64,000 nucleotides of DNA from a virus. The notes beneath the pieces were generated by a model. That model saw nothing but the letters and a program-made list of their open reading frames with translations. It had not been told where the DNA came from and did no database searches. The stretch spans positions 16,264 to 80,263 of the IMG/VR virus record IMGVR_UViG_3300025646_000024; one strand, 5' to 3'. The translations under genes and the position numbers were made by a program. Position 1 is the stretch's first letter. Each line of letters starts with the position of its first letter. Positions 54,539-61,848 of this stretch are shown here, piece by piece.

Positions 54539-55072
54539 ATGGCTAATCAATTTACAAAAGATTCTCTTCCAAGAAGACAGCAAGCAAAGAAAAATGGCGA
54601 TATTACATACCAAGGTTATAAGCCATGTGTTAAATGTGAAAATATCGAAAGATATACAAGTAATGGAAGTTGTGTTAAATGCGAAAGGGAAAAAGGATTG
54701 GTTAAACTTTTAGATGATGAATTAATGGCTCAATACCGAACTAAAGAAAAACACGCTAAAAATAGAGAAAGGAGAAGAGAAATTATTAGAGAAAATAGTA
54801 AACGTTATTCTCAAACAGAAAAAGGTAAAATTTGTTCTAATTTAAGTTCTTCTAATAGAAGAGCAAGAGTTCGTAATCAATTGCCAGATACAGCTGATTT
54901 TGAAAAAATTAAACAAATTTACGCAGAGTGCCGTAGAATAAGTGAAGAAACAGGAATTCCTCACGAAGTTGATCATATTGTTCCAATTTCAAAAGGTGGA
55001 TTGCATCATCAAGATAATCTTCAAATATTAACTAGATTTGAAAACCGATCTAAAGGAGGTCAATTATTATGA
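54539..55072 (+). CDS. Free-standing HNH homing endonuclease
   Basis: A 177-residue basic protein. Cys pairs at 30/33 and 45/48 form an N-terminal zinc ribbon, a long Arg/Lys helix follows, and the HNH core HEVDHIVPISKGG...DNLQILTRFEN lies near 142-172. It is a free-standing homing endonuclease inserted between gp55 and gp47 with its own perfect late promoter. Its stop overlaps the gp47 start (ATGA), so insertion kept translation coupled. Confidence 0.88.
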   Translation: MANQFTKDSLPRRQQAKKNGDITYQGYKPCVKCENIERYTSNGSCVKCEREKGLVKLLDDELMAQYRTKEKHAKNRERRREIIRENSKRYSQTEKGKICSNLSSSNRRARVRNQLPDTADFEKIKQIYAECRRISEETGIPHEVDHIVPISKGGLHHQDNLQILTRFENRSKGGQLL

Positions 55073-56115
55073 GTTTAGTTGCTATCATAACAGACACCCA
55101 TTATGGGGCTAGAAAAAATTCTAAAGAATTTCATGACTACTTTAATCTTTTTTATACTAATATATTTTTTCCGACTATAGAGAAACATAATATTACTACT
55201 GTATTTCATCTTGGTGATGCATTTGATAATAGAAAATCTATTGATTTTCAGAGTTTAGAGTGGGCTAAAAAAAATATTTTTGATAAACTAAAACATTGTT
55301 CCGTTCACATGTTAACTGGAAATCATGATTGCTATTTTAAAAATACTAATAGATTAAATGCACACAATCTACTATTAGATTCATATGATAATATTACAAT
55401 CTATGATGAGATTTGTGATATTGATGTTCTAGGAAACACTATTACAATGGTTCCTTGGATTAACTCTGAAAACCAATTTAAGGTGATGAACCATTTAGAA
55501 AACACAAAGTCAGAAGTTCTGATGGGGCATCTAGAGATTAATGGATTTGAAGCTCATCCAGGGCATATGTTTGAGGGTGGTCTAGATAGAGATATTTTCT
55601 CTAAATTTAAGCGAGTTTATTCTGGTCATTTTCACCACAAGTCAAGAAGTGATAACATTTACTATCTCGGCAATCCATATGAAATGACTTGGAGTGATTA
55701 TAACGAAGAACGTGGGTTCCATCTATATAATTTAGATTCCAGGAAACTTGAATTTATTCGTAATCCATTTAGAATGTTCAAGAAATTTTATTATGATGAT
55801 GCGAAGAATGATTACACTAAAGCAGATCTATCAGAATATGCCGACAGCTACCTTAAAGTCATTGTAGAAAATAAAAACGATTTGTACACCTTTGATAAGG
55901 TAATTGAAAAATTCTATAATGTTGGAGTTCATGATCTAAAAATCATTGAAGACACTCAGGTATTTTCTGATCGAGATGACCAAGAAGTTGCAGAACATGA
56001 AGATACTCTGACTACTTTGCAACGATATATAGAAGATATGAAGAATAATTATGATAAATCTCAGTTGAAATCTATCATAAAATCTATCTATTTAGAAGCT
56101 TCTGAAATTCAGTAA
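55069..56115 (+). CDS. 47: Recombination nuclease subunit gp47 (Mre11-like)
   Basis: A 348-residue metallophosphoesterase (T4 gp47 has 339). TDTHYG (9-14), GDAFDNR (near 49), GNHDCY (near 84), MGHLE, and GHFHH (near 186) are the phosphoesterase motifs of Mre11. With gp46 it resects double-strand ends for recombination and degrades host DNA. It is coupled to the DUF3110 gene and gp46. Confidence 0.94.
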   Translation: MSLVAIITDTHYGARKNSKEFHDYFNLFYTNIFFPTIEKHNITTVFHLGDAFDNRKSIDFQSLEWAKKNIFDKLKHCSVHMLTGNHDCYFKNTNRLNAHNLLLDSYDNITIYDEICDIDVLGNTITMVPWINSENQFKVMNHLENTKSEVLMGHLEINGFEAHPGHMFEGGLDRDIFSKFKRVYSGHFHHKSRSDNIYYLGNPYEMTWSDYNEERGFHLYNLDSRKLEFIRNPFRMFKKFYYDDAKNDYTKADLSEYADSYLKVIVENKNDLYTFDKVIEKFYNVGVHDLKIIEDTQVFSDRDDQEVAEHEDTLTTLQRYIEDMKNNYDKSQLKSIIKSIYLEASEIQ

Positions 56116-56390
56116 TGTATATACTAACTCTCAAAGACAGAAAAGAAGAAGGTGCATATGCAGTAGAAACTTCTGATGGAAGTAAAGTTTTGCAAATGTT
56201 TGTTGATGAGGACGATGCACTTCGATATGTTGGTCTTCTGGAAGCAGATGGTTTCCCTGAATTACAATTAGTTGAAATTGAGGAAGAAGATGCTGTGACT
56301 GTTTGTGAGAGTTTTGGATATAATTATTGTGTTATAACACCTGATGATTTTGTAATTCCTCCTGATACCATTTCCTATGATTTTATTTAA
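56115..56390 (+). CDS. DUF3110 protein
   Basis: A 91-residue acidic protein. YILTLKDRKEEGAYAVET, VDEDDALRYVGLLEADGFPE then CESFGYNYCVI follow DUF3110, a domain otherwise found in cyanobacteria and plastids. Its function is unknown. It lies between the two subunits of the gp46/47 nuclease with overlaps of one and 14 bases, which suggests a role linked to them or simple translational hitch-hiking. Probably host-derived. Confidence 0.8.
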   Translation: MYILTLKDRKEEGAYAVETSDGSKVLQMFVDEDDALRYVGLLEADGFPELQLVEIEEEDAVTVCESFGYNYCVITPDDFVIPPDTISYDFI

Positions 56391-58089: not shown

Positions 58090-58101
58090 GCAATCCTTAT
58101 G

Positions 58102-58140
58102 GTCCACCCCATTGACATGGTGGGGTGGACCTGTTACTAT
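58102..58140 (+). promoter_or_regulatory. Promoter with -35 in hairpin loop
   Basis: GTCCACCCCA (58102-58111) and TGGGGTGGAC (58121-58130) are perfect 10-bp arms. The loop starts with the -35 TTGACA (58112-58117); TACTAT (58135-58140) is 17 bases on. Confidence 0.75.
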
Positions 58141-58163
58141 ATGAGGACTGAATTGAGGCACCT

Positions 58164-60314
58164 ATGTCCGACATCAAACAGTCCAAGAGTATTCTTGCTA
58201 AACTTTTGGCAACAGAAAACCTTACTGTTGAGCATCGTTCTGTTCCTACTGCAAGTTTTGATACCCATAATCGGGTTTTGACTCTCCCTATTTGGGAAGG
58301 TACTTCTAATGACGTATATGACCTTCTCGTAGGTCACGAAGTTGGTCATGCTATTTACACTCCAGATTTATATGGTAGTGACCTGAATCTTCCCCAGGGT
58401 TACTTGAATGTGGTTGAGGATGCTCGCATTGAGAAATTGATGAAGCGAAAGTATCCTGGTCTTGCTCGTGCATTTTATCGTGGGTATTCAGAACTTCATG
58501 ATGAAGATTTTTTTGAAGTAAAGTCTATTGATATCAATTCACTTAAGTTTATTGATAAAATCAATCTACACTTTAAACTGGGCAATGTTACTTCTGGAGT
58601 GTTTATTAACTTCACCCCAGAGGAACAGGTAATTATTGGCAAAATTGCTAATGCAGAAACTTTTGATGACGTTGTTAATATTGTCAAGGAACTTGTAGAG
58701 CATACTGAACAACAAGTTGAACTTCAATTGTTTTCCAATGCAGGAGACTCAATGGAAGGTGAGATGGATGATGGTGATTCTGAACCCCAAGAGAATCAAA
58801 GTTCACAGAGTAATGTAAGTGATAGTCAGAATCAAACCTCTGCCCAATCAGATTGCGATAATAAGGAAGATACTCCAAAGGAATCTACTCCATCTTCTTC
58901 TAACAACTCTGGAAAGCAAGCAGATTTTACTTCTGATACCGATGAGGCATGGTCTAAGAATCAACAGCAACTTGCTAGTCTTACTGGAAATGCTTACATT
59001 TATTTGACTCCTCCGACTATTAATATTGATAATCATATTCTTGATTGGAAAGATTGTGTTAATGATCTTCCTGATATTTTTAAAGAACTGATTTCTGACG
59101 CAAATCATTCTGGATACAAGAATAAGCAGTATTACCAGAATATGTTCAATAAAGCAGAGAATGATTATAAAAATTACAAAGATGATTGCAAGAAATCAGT
59201 ATCGTACCTGATTAAAGAATTTGAAATGAAGAAACGAGCAACCGAATATAATCGGTCTGCCACTGCAGGGACAGGCATCCTTGATACCAATAAAATGTAT
59301 TCCTACAAGTGGAATGACGACATCTTCAAGAAAGTAACTGTGGTTCCCAAAGGTAAGTCTCACGGTCTAATCATGTATATTGATTGGTCTGGATCAATGC
59401 AAGGAAACCTAGTTGGTACTGTTAAGCAACTATTCAATCTAATTCAGTTTTGTAAAAAGACACAGATTCCTTTTGAGGTGTTTTCTTTTAATGATCGGAA
59501 TGTAGCAAAGAACTATGGTCAAATGTCTCGCAATAAGCAGACTAAGATTGCAGATAATCAAATTTTCATCAACAATGATTTTCTTCTTGTTAATTTTCTA
59601 AGCAGTAAAATGAACACTGCTCAGCTTGAGAAACAGATGAAGAATATTTGGAAACTTGCACACGCTCTGGATCAGCAATCATATCTAACCTATAATTATA
59701 ATCACTACGATCTAGGTAGCACTCCTCTAAACGAGTGTGTATTTGCAGCGATTGATGTTTTTGAAAAGTTCAAGAACACCTATAAAGTGGATAAAGTCAA
59801 TACAGTCTTCTTGACTGATGGCGAATCCAACTCAGTTTCATATAATCGTCCATCTCATGGCAGTAAAAATATTGTTCATGCTGGTTGGCTACATGGTAAT
59901 GAAGTTCTATGTCTTCAGGACAAAAAGAACAAGATTACTATGATGAACATTAGCAAGAATGGTAGCATTGGAATTACTGGTGCGTTTGTAGATTACTATC
60001 GTCAAGTAACTGGATCAAATGCTGTAGGATTCCGACTTATTGATTACTATGGTGCTAAGTCTTTTGTTTCTCGATACCTAACAGATGAGTTTTCAAATTG
60101 GACTGCAGTATCCCCCCAGTGGGCAAAAACTCGATCATTTACTGCAACTTCTTTGGGATACAACGAACTGTATTTTATTGAGATTGGCAACAGTACTCCT
60201 ACAGACACTGTTTCTGCCACACAAACAAATCCATTGGCTACATTTAAAACTCAAATGAGTAAAAAGGCTTTTAATAAGATTATCTTATCAAAATTCATCG
60301 AGCAAATCGCTTGA
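58164..60314 (+). CDS. CobT-like VWA protein with metallopeptidase motif
   Basis: A 716-residue protein. The N-terminal domain has HEVGH (58-62) with VVEDARIEK downstream, a zincin-type HExxH site. Residues 190-260 are a Ser/Gln/Asp-rich linker. A von Willebrand A domain begins near 403 with the MIDAS motif DWSGS (407-411) and FLTDGES near 550. It resembles CobT/chelatase-type VWA subunits and pairs with the CobS-like AAA+ ATPase 54 bases downstream. Cobaltochelatase also needs CobN, which is absent here, so an AAA+/VWA remodelling or chelatase-accessory role is more likely than complete B12 synthesis by the phage. It has its own hairpin promoter. Confidence 0.85.
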   Translation: MSDIKQSKSILAKLLATENLTVEHRSVPTASFDTHNRVLTLPIWEGTSNDVYDLLVGHEVGHAIYTPDLYGSDLNLPQGYLNVVEDARIEKLMKRKYPGLARAFYRGYSELHDEDFFEVKSIDINSLKFIDKINLHFKLGNVTSGVFINFTPEEQVIIGKIANAETFDDVVNIVKELVEHTEQQVELQLFSNAGDSMEGEMDDGDSEPQENQSSQSNVSDSQNQTSAQSDCDNKEDTPKESTPSSSNNSGKQADFTSDTDEAWSKNQQQLASLTGNAYIYLTPPTINIDNHILDWKDCVNDLPDIFKELISDANHSGYKNKQYYQNMFNKAENDYKNYKDDCKKSVSYLIKEFEMKKRATEYNRSATAGTGILDTNKMYSYKWNDDIFKKVTVVPKGKSHGLIMYIDWSGSMQGNLVGTVKQLFNLIQFCKKTQIPFEVFSFNDRNVAKNYGQMSRNKQTKIADNQIFINNDFLLVNFLSSKMNTAQLEKQMKNIWKLAHALDQQSYLTYNYNHYDLGSTPLNECVFAAIDVFEKFKNTYKVDKVNTVFLTDGESNSVSYNRPSHGSKNIVHAGWLHGNEVLCLQDKKNKITMMNISKNGSIGITGAFVDYYRQVTGSNAVGFRLIDYYGAKSFVSRYLTDEFSNWTAVSPQWAKTRSFTATSLGYNELYFIEIGNSTPTDTVSATQTNPLATFKTQMSKKAFNKIILSKFIEQIA

Positions 60315-60339
60315 CACCCCACCCATTTTGCCCTATACT
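60311..60339 (+). promoter_or_regulatory. Sigma-70-type promoter
   Basis: TTGACA (60311-60316) overlapping the stop codon of the CobT-like gene, 17-bp spacer, TATACT (60334-60339). Confidence 0.8.
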
Positions 60340-60368
60340 ACTTTCATACCAAACGAGGTAACTTCATT

Positions 60369-61481
60369 ATGACTCAAATGATTGATCAGCTTGTTCAAAA
60401 TCTGACTGCTCTTTATGGCGAAACTGTGACTCGTCAACAACTAATTGAATATGCTGCAAACGCAGATACTTCACTTGCGTCTATTTGCAAAATTCTTGAG
60501 CCCAACAAAACTGGTCGTGGAGTCTGGAACTTGACTGTAACTGAACAACTTGAAAAAACCTTTAATTCTATGTCTGCAACTCCTGCTACTCCTGTAGTTA
60601 GCTTCATTCCTCAGAAAGACAAGAACTATGTCTCGTTTGGTAACTTTACTGATGTGAAGCGAATCATCAAGTCTGGGATGTTCTATCCTGTATTCATCAC
60701 TGGTCTTTCTGGTAATGGTAAAACCGTCAGTGTAGAGCAAGCTTGTGCTCAATTGAAGCGTGAACTGATCCGTGTCAACATCACTATTGAGACTGACGAA
60801 GATGATCTGCTGGGTGGTTTCCGACTCGTTGATGGGGAAACTGTATGGCATGACGGTCCTGTGGTGAATGCACTGAAGCGTGGTGCAGTCCTTCTGCTTG
60901 ATGAGATTGACCTTGCATCTAACAAGATCATGTGCCTGCAGTCTGTTCTTGAAGGTAAGGGTGTATTCCTTAAGAAGATCAATCAATATGTAACTCCTTC
61001 TGCTGGCTTTAATGTGATTGCAACTGCCAACACCAAGGGCAAAGGTTCTGATGATGGTCGGTTTATCGGCACCAATGTGATGAACGAAGCCTTCCTTGAA
61101 CGTTTTCCTATCACGTTTGAGCAGCCTTATCCTTCGATGGCAACTGAGAAAAAGATTCTCATGAACCTGATGAATTCTTTTGAGGTTGTTGATGAGGAGT
61201 TTGTAGACAAACTGATTGTCTGGGCAGACACTATCCGTAAGACCTTCTATGACGGTGGTGTTGACGAGATTATTACTACTCGTCGTCTTGTCCACATTAT
61301 TCAATCTTTTGCTATCTTCAAGAACCGCAAAAAAGCAATCAATGTTTGCATCAATCGCTTTGATGATGATACCAAGAGTTCTTTCCTGGATCTCTACAAG
61401 AACATTGATGCATCTGCTCTAGAGACTACTGAAGAAGGCGTAGTAGAACCCAACGAAGAGGAACTTGACAACGCCAACTGA
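60369..61481 (+). CDS. cobS: CobS-type AAA+ ATPase
   Basis: A 370-residue MoxR/CobS-class AAA+ protein. Walker A GLSGNGKT (near 112-119), Walker B VLLLDEIDLA (near 174-183), sensor segment NVIATANTKG and arginine-finger region FLERFPITFEQ are all present. The first 100 residues contain a small helical domain. CobS hexamers with CobT power metal insertion by CobN; cobS is common in T4-like cyanophages although its real substrate in infection is not settled. Its last codons contain the promoter for the next gene. Confidence 0.9.
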   Translation: MTQMIDQLVQNLTALYGETVTRQQLIEYAANADTSLASICKILEPNKTGRGVWNLTVTEQLEKTFNSMSATPATPVVSFIPQKDKNYVSFGNFTDVKRIIKSGMFYPVFITGLSGNGKTVSVEQACAQLKRELIRVNITIETDEDDLLGGFRLVDGETVWHDGPVVNALKRGAVLLLDEIDLASNKIMCLQSVLEGKGVFLKKINQYVTPSAGFNVIATANTKGKGSDDGRFIGTNVMNEAFLERFPITFEQPYPSMATEKKILMNLMNSFEVVDEEFVDKLIVWADTIRKTFYDGGVDEIITTRRLVHIIQSFAIFKNRKKAINVCINRFDDDTKSSFLDLYKNIDASALETTEEGVVEPNEEELDNAN

Positions 61482-61493
61482 TTGATGTATACT
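61465..61493 (+). promoter_or_regulatory. Sigma-70-type promoter inside cobS end
   Basis: TTGACA (61465-61470), 17-bp spacer, TATACT (61488-61493). The TTGACA is coding (Leu-Asp-Asn) for CobS. Confidence 0.75.
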
Positions 61494-61494
61494 A

Positions 61495-61516
61495 GGGGAG
61501 TTCTCTCCCCGTTTTT
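61495..61516 (+). terminator. Rho-independent terminator
   Basis: GGGGAG (61495-61500), loop TTCT, CTCCCC (61505-61510), G and six T. It ends the cobS transcript; the promoter just before it would start RNA within the left arm, so its own transcript escapes termination. Confidence 0.85.
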
Positions 61517-61533
61517 TATTCGGAGATTTAATT

Positions 61534-61848
61534 ATGCAATGGAAGTACAACGAAGACAGAATCCTCAAGGACATCGAGGAGTATGTAGTAAGTACTTATG
61601 GAAGCCACTACTGTGGTCATGATGAAGAATATTCTGATGTTCAAACAATTGATCTGATGGCTGCAAAAGGTCTAGCACAGGATTTTTGTCAAGCCAATAT
61701 TTTGAAGTATGGTTCCAGGTATGGTGACAAGGATGGACATAACAAACGTGATTTGATGAAAGTCATTCACTATGCAATGCTTCTTCTTCACTTTGACAAG
61801 CACTATTCTCGCACACAAAACGGTCTCCAGGAGTTCAAATCTGTATGA
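61534..61848 (+). CDS. DUF3310 protein
   Basis: A 104-residue protein. TIDLMAAKGLAQDFCQANIL KYGSRYGDKDG and KRDLMKVIHYAML match DUF3310, a small helical domain common in phages near nucleotide-metabolism and replication genes (often called a nucleotide-kinase-like protein without proof). It overlaps the sliding clamp start by ATGA and is the first gene of the replisome operon. Confidence 0.85.
   Translation: MQWKYNEDRILKDIEEYVVSTYGSHYCGHDEEYSDVQTIDLMAAKGLAQDFCQANILKYGSRYGDKDGHNKRDLMKVIHYAMLLLHFDKHYSRTQNGLQEFKSV

What the first reader, a model, noticed from the sequence alone, without database searches (positions are those of the whole stretch)
58102..61493. CobT-like/CobS pair with separate strong promoters and an intact zinc motif
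The VWA protein has both HEVGH and a full MIDAS, and the AAA+ partner has all ATPase motifs, but CobN is not present in this window. Each gene has a near-consensus promoter, unlike the structural genes. The pair may drive host CobN or Mg-chelatase-type complexes, or act as an AAA+/VWA protease or remodeller in infection.
Basis: partly seen in the sequence, partly recalled or inferred. Interest (0 to 1): 0.55.

Follow-up and report, generated by a model that had tools for sequence, protein, structure and literature searches.

The report
Phage AAA+ motor with protease partner
A gene pair in a cyanobacterial virus that is usually called a vitamin B12 gene pair looks instead like an ATP-driven motor joined to a zinc protease, sitting among the virus's DNA-copying and DNA-repair genes, so its real job during infection can now be tested.

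Summary
The window is a fragment of a T4-like cyanophage. It has a 716-aa VWA protein (58164-60314; PHROG 459, 'peptidase') with HEVGH, a third-ligand-type EDARIE motif and a full MIDAS, followed by a 370-aa CobS-like AAA+ ATPase (60369-61481; PHROG 249). Each has its own sigma-70-type promoter, conserved in close relatives; many structural genes carry late ATAAATA boxes instead.

The cobaltochelatase reading is weak. No CobN occurs in the record or in 12 relatives. Genuine CobT lacks HExxH (0 of 14), whereas the phage family keeps it (107 of 109), in its best-conserved domain. Relatives carry a B12-independent ribonucleotide reductase.

In T4-like phages the pair lies between gp46 and gp45. 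Distant pairs in Vibrio, Salmonella, Rhizobium and E. coli phages and on conjugative plasmids also mostly sit in replication/recombination modules, including in E. coli, whose control genome has no CobN.

Best reading: an early/middle-expressed AAA+/VWA machine with a zincin-type peptidase, acting on proteins at replicating or recombining DNA. Activity and substrate are inferred. Print already offers two other roles (B12; virion assembly). Also found: a covarying hairpin whose loop holds a -35 box.

The parts
58101..58131 (.). Hairpin, 11-bp perfect stem, 9-base loop that holds the -35 box of the VWA promoter
   Evidence: Found; aligned in 15 sequences; covariation 14 cells changed on both sides, 97.7% of cells paired, 0 of 500 shuffles as high; RNA fold z -3.43
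58112..58140 (+). Sigma-70-type promoter of the VWA gene, TTGACA-17-TACTAT
   Evidence: at least 10/12 match in 14 of 15 close relatives
58164..60314 (+). VWA protein with N-terminal metallopeptidase-type domain, 716 aa
   Evidence: (PHROG 459, E 6.7e-221)
58335..58349 (+). Codons of HEVGH (residues 58-62)
58416..58433 (+). Codons of EDARIE (residues 85-90), putative third metal ligand
59382..59396 (+). Codons of DWSGS, MIDAS motif (residues 407-411); T520 and D552 complete it
60311..60339 (+). Sigma-70-type promoter of cobS, TTGACA-17-TATACT
   Evidence: at least 10/12 match in 17 of 17 close relatives
60369..61481 (+). CobS-like (MoxR-type) AAA+ ATPase, 370 aa
   Evidence: AAA_5 2.8e-19; PHROG 249, E 3.4e-130
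60702..60725 (+). Codons of Walker A GLSGNGKT (residues 112-119)
60891..60911 (+). Codons of Walker B LLLDEID (residues 175-181)
61465..61493 (+). Promoter of the next gene (DUF3310), overlapping the end of cobS
   Evidence: 16 of 16 close relatives
61495..61510 (+). Terminator-like hairpin after cobS, followed by a T run
   Evidence: present in 16 of 17 close relatives

Best explanation
The pair encodes an ATP-driven AAA+/VWA machine with an intact zincin-type metallopeptidase domain. The CobS-like protein forms the motor ring (inferred from its family). The VWA protein docks on it through its MIDAS/VWA domain and carries the peptidase at its N-terminus across a flexible linker. It is made from its own early/middle-type promoters and acts on proteins at replicating or recombining phage DNA, by remodelling or cutting them, rather than inserting cobalt into B12. 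Shown here: motifs, their conservation, gene linkage, promoters, absence of CobN. Inferred: catalysis, complex, substrate, timing.
For: HExxH and the ED-R-E motif in 107 of 109 loci, MIDAS in 123 of 123. N-domain is the most conserved part, 87%/51% against 80%/30% for VWA. Model puts HEVGH in one helix and E85 in the next. VWA part matches NorD VWA (Z 16.4) and Midasin MIDAS (Z 15.9); the AAA+ profile matches Midasin, CobS and NorQ. True CobT lacks HExxH in 14 of 14 N-termini. gp46 upstream in 56 of 56 and gp45 downstream in 39 of 39 viral loci; cobS after VWA within 3 kb in 99 of 103. Same place in Ochrobactrum and Pelagibacter phages; replication/recombination module also in SSU5, X66, phiK7B1, Cyrano, ICP2 and IncC plasmids. 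Early-type promoters, no late box.
Against: No biochemistry. The N-domain fold was not matched to any solved zincin; matches span 278-716 only. HExxH is absent in 2 of 15 distant relatives (phiK7B1, Caballeronia plasmid) and the ED-R-E motif is altered in ICP2-like and Kvothe. Kvothe has its two genes split and 10-14 kb from annotated helicase and clamp. S-CRM01 has the pair on the strand opposite gp45-44-62. Gene neighbourhood is indirect, and T4-like synteny counts as one lineage.
Confidence: 0.55

Rival explanations
1. CobST of a hybrid cobaltochelatase: the phage pair drives host CobN (or ChlH) to raise B12 for nucleotide synthesis, as proposed in PMC8651126 (passages read).
For: AAA+ profile is close to solved CobS (E 7.5e-27). 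Plasmid relatives of the VWA protein weakly match the CobT models. CobN/ChlH family present in Synechococcus elongatus.
Against: No CobN in 13 records of this group. TIGR01650 score 79.7 against a cut-off of 558.55. HExxH kept where true CobT lacks it. Class I RNR small subunit in 12 of 13 records and NrdJ cut-off reached in 0 of 13. Homologous pairs in E. coli plasmids (219 and 91 of 5426 genomes) while the E. coli control genome has no CobN match. SAR11 hosts are said to lack B12 synthesis (recalled, not tested).
Confidence: 0.15
2. Virion assembly or maturation chaperone-protease, as proposed for jumbo phages in PMC7824862 (passages read).
For: Same architecture reported there: MoxR AAA+ next to a vWA protein with N-terminal metallopeptidase. 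Phage heads and tails are often matured by proteolysis.
Against: Early-type promoters and no late box in this clade. In all 56 and 39 loci tested the neighbours are gp46 and gp45. In ICP2 the pair is in the arm opposite the virion genes. Relatives on conjugative plasmids, which have no virion.
Confidence: 0.1
3. Host takeover or counter-defence protease: the machine removes a host or anti-phage protein complex early in infection and sits in the replication block only for timing.
For: Early-type promoters. VWA and helical parts diverge fast (30-31% between distant relatives), as a target-facing adaptor might. Found in mobile elements of many hosts.
Against: Near-universal in T4-like cyanophages by record counts (450 against 461) and syntenic, more like a core replication gene. 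No defence-library match for the window proteins, which says little about counter-defence.
Confidence: 0.18

Closest known systems
Cyanophage core genes 'peptidase' (T4-GC 146, PHROG 459) and cobS (T4-GC 150, PHROG 249), e.g. in S-PM2 and P-SSM2
   Same: Same families and same place between gp46 and gp45
   Different: VWA protein at most 39% identical to the listed cyanophage records; own hairpin-promoter in this freshwater-type clade (freshwater is my inference)
MoxR AAA+ and metallopeptidase-vWA pair of group 2.2 jumbo phages (PMC7824862)
   Same: AAA+ beside a VWA protein with an N-terminal metallopeptidase domain (from the paper's words)
   Different: Proposed there for virion assembly; here in the replication block with early-type promoters. 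Sequences not compared
Cobaltochelatase CobS/CobT
   Same: AAA+ plus VWA/MIDAS layout with acidic linker; related domains
   Different: No CobN partner; HExxH and ED-R-E kept here, absent or altered in CobT
NorQ/NorD and Midasin (AAA+ remodellers with VWA/MIDAS partners)
   Same: VWA domain fold, Z 16.4 and 15.9; related AAA+
   Different: The matched regions hold no peptidase domain; different substrates
IncC/MOBH plasmid AAA-DUF3150-VWA group
   Same: HExxH and ED-R-E in 4 of the 5 plasmid VWA proteins; full-length profile match (E 4.7e-20); next to ssb-bet-exo on IncC
   Different: Extra DUF3150 protein; plasmid VWA proteins score weakly against the CobT models, the window protein not at all

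Membership tests
Aerobic cobaltochelatase CobNST | CobN subunit encoded with or near the pair | tested here: not met
   PF02514 absent from G000 and from 12 of 12 related records; host CobN could still serve
Aerobic cobaltochelatase CobNST | CobS equivalog score (TIGR01650) | tested here: not met
   79.7 bits, cut-off 558.55
Aerobic cobaltochelatase CobNST | CobT domain models PF06213 and PF11775 | tested here: not met
   No match of the window VWA protein at E up to 1
Aerobic cobaltochelatase CobNST | N-domain without HExxH, as in genuine CobT | tested here: not met
   0 of 14 CobT N-termini have HExxH; the phage family has it in 107 of 109
Aerobic cobaltochelatase CobNST | Metal insertion activity with CobN | not testable with these tools
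   Needs an enzyme assay
MoxR AAA+ / metallopeptidase-vWA pair (PMC7824862) | MoxR-type AAA+ gene beside a vWA gene with N-terminal HExxH domain | tested here: met
MoxR AAA+ / metallopeptidase-vWA pair (PMC7824862) | Sequence kinship with the jumbo-phage proteins named there | not tested
   Those sequences were not fetched
Zincin metallopeptidase (gluzincin type) | HExxH on a helix with a Glu ligand on a following helix | tested here: inconclusive
   Motifs and predicted helices fit; no fold match covers the N-domain; metal not tested
PHROG 459 / PHROG 249 | Full-length profile match | tested here: met
   6.7e-221 over 5-736 of 736 and 3.4e-130 over 13-364 of 380
AAA+ remodeller with VWA partner (NorQD, Midasin) | VWA/MIDAS domain of the NorD/Midasin fold with all five MIDAS residues | tested here: met
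   Z 16.4 and 15.9; D407, S409, S411, T520, D552 invariant

The most novel reading that the evidence does not exclude
The pair is a mobile-element counterpart, by convergence, of the eukaryotic p97/SPRTN (Cdc48/Wss1) route (recalled): an AAA+ motor feeding a DNA-associated zinc protease that clears proteins from DNA ends, forks or recombination intermediates. It would be used by T4-like phages, phage-plasmids and conjugative plasmids, and chelatase CobT would be a protease-dead derivative of this family.
Probability: 0.2. Interest if true: 0.85.

Novelty: new member of a known kind. Interest (0 to 1): 0.5.

Why it matters
cobS, often with cobT, is cited in cyanophage and pelagiphage papers as an auxiliary B12 or nucleotide-metabolism gene (PMC5083919, PMC9599517, PMC7029224; passages). 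If the pair is a replication-linked AAA+ protease, those B12 inferences need revision. A core gene pair of marine T4-like phages, with homologous proteins on about a thousand plasmid records in each of two searches, would gain a testable role. It would also suggest where the chelatase subunit CobT came from.

Tried and rejected
Cobaltochelatase as first choice: disfavoured by the missing CobN, the intact HExxH, class I RNR and hosts without CobN. Virion maturation: disfavoured by promoters and context. Defence system: no PADLOC match for the window proteins; one weak mad8 match (E 0.00027) for the IncC AAA+ protein. Counting promoters in the region: no excess over shuffles, so I used conservation.

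Structure: the VWA profile has no real sequence relative in the PDB (one legumin-like hit at E 0.46). The Foldseek list is led by VWA domains with low query TM-scores. CobT structures do not appear among the rows, which shows nothing either way. The AAA+ model is mediocre (pLDDT 69.0) and was not searched. The genome-contig scan gave 593 pattern hits and 6 relatives, all on contigs of metagenome-assembled genomes or bins; I did not establish that any is cellular. In one search, 14 of 123 loci with a cut 5' end were left out of the HExxH count; two 5'-open ORFs (L031, L037; 591 and 503 aa) lack both motifs and are counted as misses. In one search the four cobS misses are L120 and L126 (1.3 and 1.9 kb of contig left, no cobS hit) and L102 and L110 (cobS more than 3 kb away). 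Promoter starts come from BLAST ends, so values for far relatives are approximate. The AAA+ tree has very long branches (Kvothe, ICP2-like) and only 3 true CobS; I take from it only that the T4-like proteins form one group apart from those 3.

Papers seen as passages only: PMC7824862, PMC8651126, PMC9503650, PMC11288001, PMC5083919, PMC3037559, PMC5082946, PMC7238727, PMC2786100, PMC7689651, PMC9599517, PMC7029224, PMC10838148, PMC11452348, PMC4285135; the last two gave nothing on B12 synthesis in SAR11. A link of this pair to replication or recombination was not found in searches (DUF3150: 0 papers) and 119; most subscription papers are not held. Timing tables and virion proteomes for these genes sit in supplements that could not be opened.
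Full report
What is there. The window is bases 16264-80263 of an 80,263-base virus record. Its end carries the T4-type block gp55-like, HNH, gp47, DUF3110, gp46, VWA, cobS, DUF3310, gp45, gp44, gp62 on the + strand (T4 names by family match, synteny with annotated S-PM2, and recall). The pair in question is a 716-aa VWA protein and a 370-aa AAA+ ATPase. The VWA protein matches PHROG 459 'peptidase' over its length and no Pfam CobT model; the ATPase matches AAA_5 and PHROG 249 'porphyrin biosynthesis'. Against the curated CobS model TIGR01650 it scores 79.7 bits where 558.55 are asked. In the phage collection, relatives of the VWA protein are in 463 of 50,697 records, nearly all cyanophages. 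By organism name 450 Synechococcus/Cyanophage/Prochlorococcus records have it and 461 have the clamp loader gp44, with different E-value limits and no record-by-record matching.

The active-site motifs are real and constrained. HEVGH, E85, D86, R88, E90 and the MIDAS residues are invariant in 20 of 20 aligned family members. Of 123 viral loci, 109 hold the 5' end of the gene; 107 of these have HExxH and 107 the E-D-x-R-x-E type motif, and all 123 have DWSGS. The N-terminal domain is the most conserved part of the protein: mean identity to the window 87% in close and 51% in far relatives, against 80% and 30% for the VWA domain and 58% and 13% for the linker. A dead relic would be expected to drift faster. 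The AlphaFold model (mean pLDDT 71.2) puts HEVGH inside one helix and E85 in the next. The N-domain fold itself was not tested against solved structures, since the matches span residues 278-716. In that part the best matches are the NorD VWA domain (Z 16.4, rmsd 5.6, 254 aligned) and the human Midasin MIDAS domain (Z 15.9, rmsd 3.2, 212 aligned), both partners of AAA+ remodellers.

True CobT differs exactly here. In 14 CobT proteins with the N-terminus in view, all from one bacterial family, none has HExxH, and the following motif reads like METARCE in place of EDARIE. The solved CobT aligns to the plasmid family from the ED-R-E motif onward, not over HExxH. So the phage protein is not a chelatase CobT by sequence, although the two are related in layout.

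The same machine outside cyanophages. The Ochrobactrum phage vB_OspM_OC and the Pelagibacter phages HTVC008M and Mosig carry the pair at the same place between gp46 and gp45. The unannotated Pseudoalteromonas phage XG4 has broken ORFs of the pair directly before gp45-, gp44- and gp62-like ORFs (my reading of the ORF translations). S-CRM01 is an exception, with the pair on the strand opposite gp45-44-62. Outside T4-like phages, SSU5, Rhizobium phage X66, phiK7B1 and Escherichia phage Cyrano share one module: ligase, CobT-like, CobS-like, DNA polymerase, with SSB, exonuclease and/or recombinase further on. ICP2 has the pair upstream of primase, helicase and polymerase, in the arm opposite its virion genes. 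IncC plasmids have AAA, ssb, bet, exo, DUF3150, VWA, and other plasmids AAA, DUF3150, VWA. Gordonia phage Kvothe does not fit well: its two genes are split by three others, 10-14 kb from the annotated helicase and clamp. HExxH is present in 13 of 15 such proteins examined, missing in phiK7B1 and the Caballeronia plasmid protein; the ED-R motif is altered in ICP2-like and not seen in Kvothe. Profile comparison links the cyanophage family to the plasmid family over nearly full length (E 4.7e-20) and to the SSU5-type family over the N-domain (E 3e-7). T4-like phages should be counted as one lineage, the SSU5 type as one, ICP2 as one and the plasmids as one, so the replication link rests on about four cases with one poor fit.

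B12 does not fit well. CobN is absent from the record and from 12 of 12 related records searched. Twelve of 13 records carry the class I RNR small subunit (the 13th is the window's own fragment), and none reaches the B12-dependent NrdJ cut-off, so these phages bring an RNR that does not need B12 (class I chemistry is established knowledge). Homologous families lie in 219 and 91 of 5426 E. coli genomes, nearly all on plasmids, and the E. coli control genome does not match CobN (that E. coli is among the controls is seen). For cyanobacterial hosts a hijack of CobN or ChlH is not excluded.

Expression signals. In close relatives the pair's promoters are kept in 14 of 15 (VWA) and 17 of 17 (cobS), against 0-3 loci per gene for gp47, gp46, gp45, gp44 and gp62. 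A terminator-like hairpin follows cobS in 16 of 17. Between gp46 and the VWA gene stands a hairpin whose loop holds the -35 box. Its stem covaries: 14 cells changed on both sides, 97.7% of cells paired, none of 500 shuffles as high, and slid controls show next to nothing (12 distinct sequences). In more distant phages 28 of 91 loci have a GC-rich hairpin there, only one with TTGAC in it, against 3.4% of random stretches. The plain reading is that the gp46 transcript ends there, that the pair is its own unit, and that in this clade the end hairpin has merged with the promoter (inference). Early/middle timing is inferred; transcriptome work on P-HM2 describes early, middle and late classes (PMC5082946, passages), but its gene table was out of reach.

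Prior art. PMC8651126 calls cyanophage cobT 'mistakenly annotated as a peptidase' and proposes hijack of host CobN. PMC7824862 describes a MoxR AAA+ and metallopeptidase-vWA pair in jumbo phages and proposes virion assembly. PMC5083919 says that cyanophage cobS is not actually homologous to bacterial cobS, yet discusses a B12 role. PMC3037559 lists cobS as a cyanophage core gene among syntenic core genes. PMC2786100 shows that bet and exo work in recombination in SXT elements and notes orthologues on IncA/C plasmids; in the passages seen it says nothing of the pair. My data favour the peptidase annotation over the CobT renaming, and a replication setting over a virion one.

Verdict. The pair is real, conserved and not new as genes. 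The useful result is a set of tests that moves it from the B12 shelf to the AAA+/VWA metallopeptidase shelf, with a replication/recombination context that I did not find in print in the searches listed under Tried and rejected.

Noticed in passing
58101-58131: Covarying hairpin with the -35 box of the VWA promoter in its loop; possible merged gp46 terminator and promoter, or an operator.
   Followed up: partly
54539-55072: HNH endonuclease gene between the gp55-like gene and gp47; it is found in only 2 of the 43 loci (L010, L012), so it looks mobile.
   Followed up: no
56115-56390: DUF3110 protein between gp47 and gp46 (PF11360, E 3.3e-17), kept at that place in related loci; function unknown.
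   Followed up: no
61534-61848: DUF3310 gene with one of the strongest and best conserved promoters of the block (16 of 16 close relatives at 11/12); it matches parts of nucleotide kinase PHROGs.
   Followed up: no
L044:10202-10696 and L046:9614-10168: Peptide deformylase gene directly or closely upstream of the pair in the Ochrobactrum and Pelagibacter (Mosig) phages.
   Followed up: no
L047:11869-15406: In the unverified record of Pseudoalteromonas phage XG4 both genes of the pair are broken into pieces, by sequence error or decay.
   Followed up: no
L052, L053, L054, L055: On conjugative and MOBH plasmids a DUF3150 protein lies directly before the VWA gene, a possible third component; DUF3150 gave 0 papers.
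   Followed up: partly
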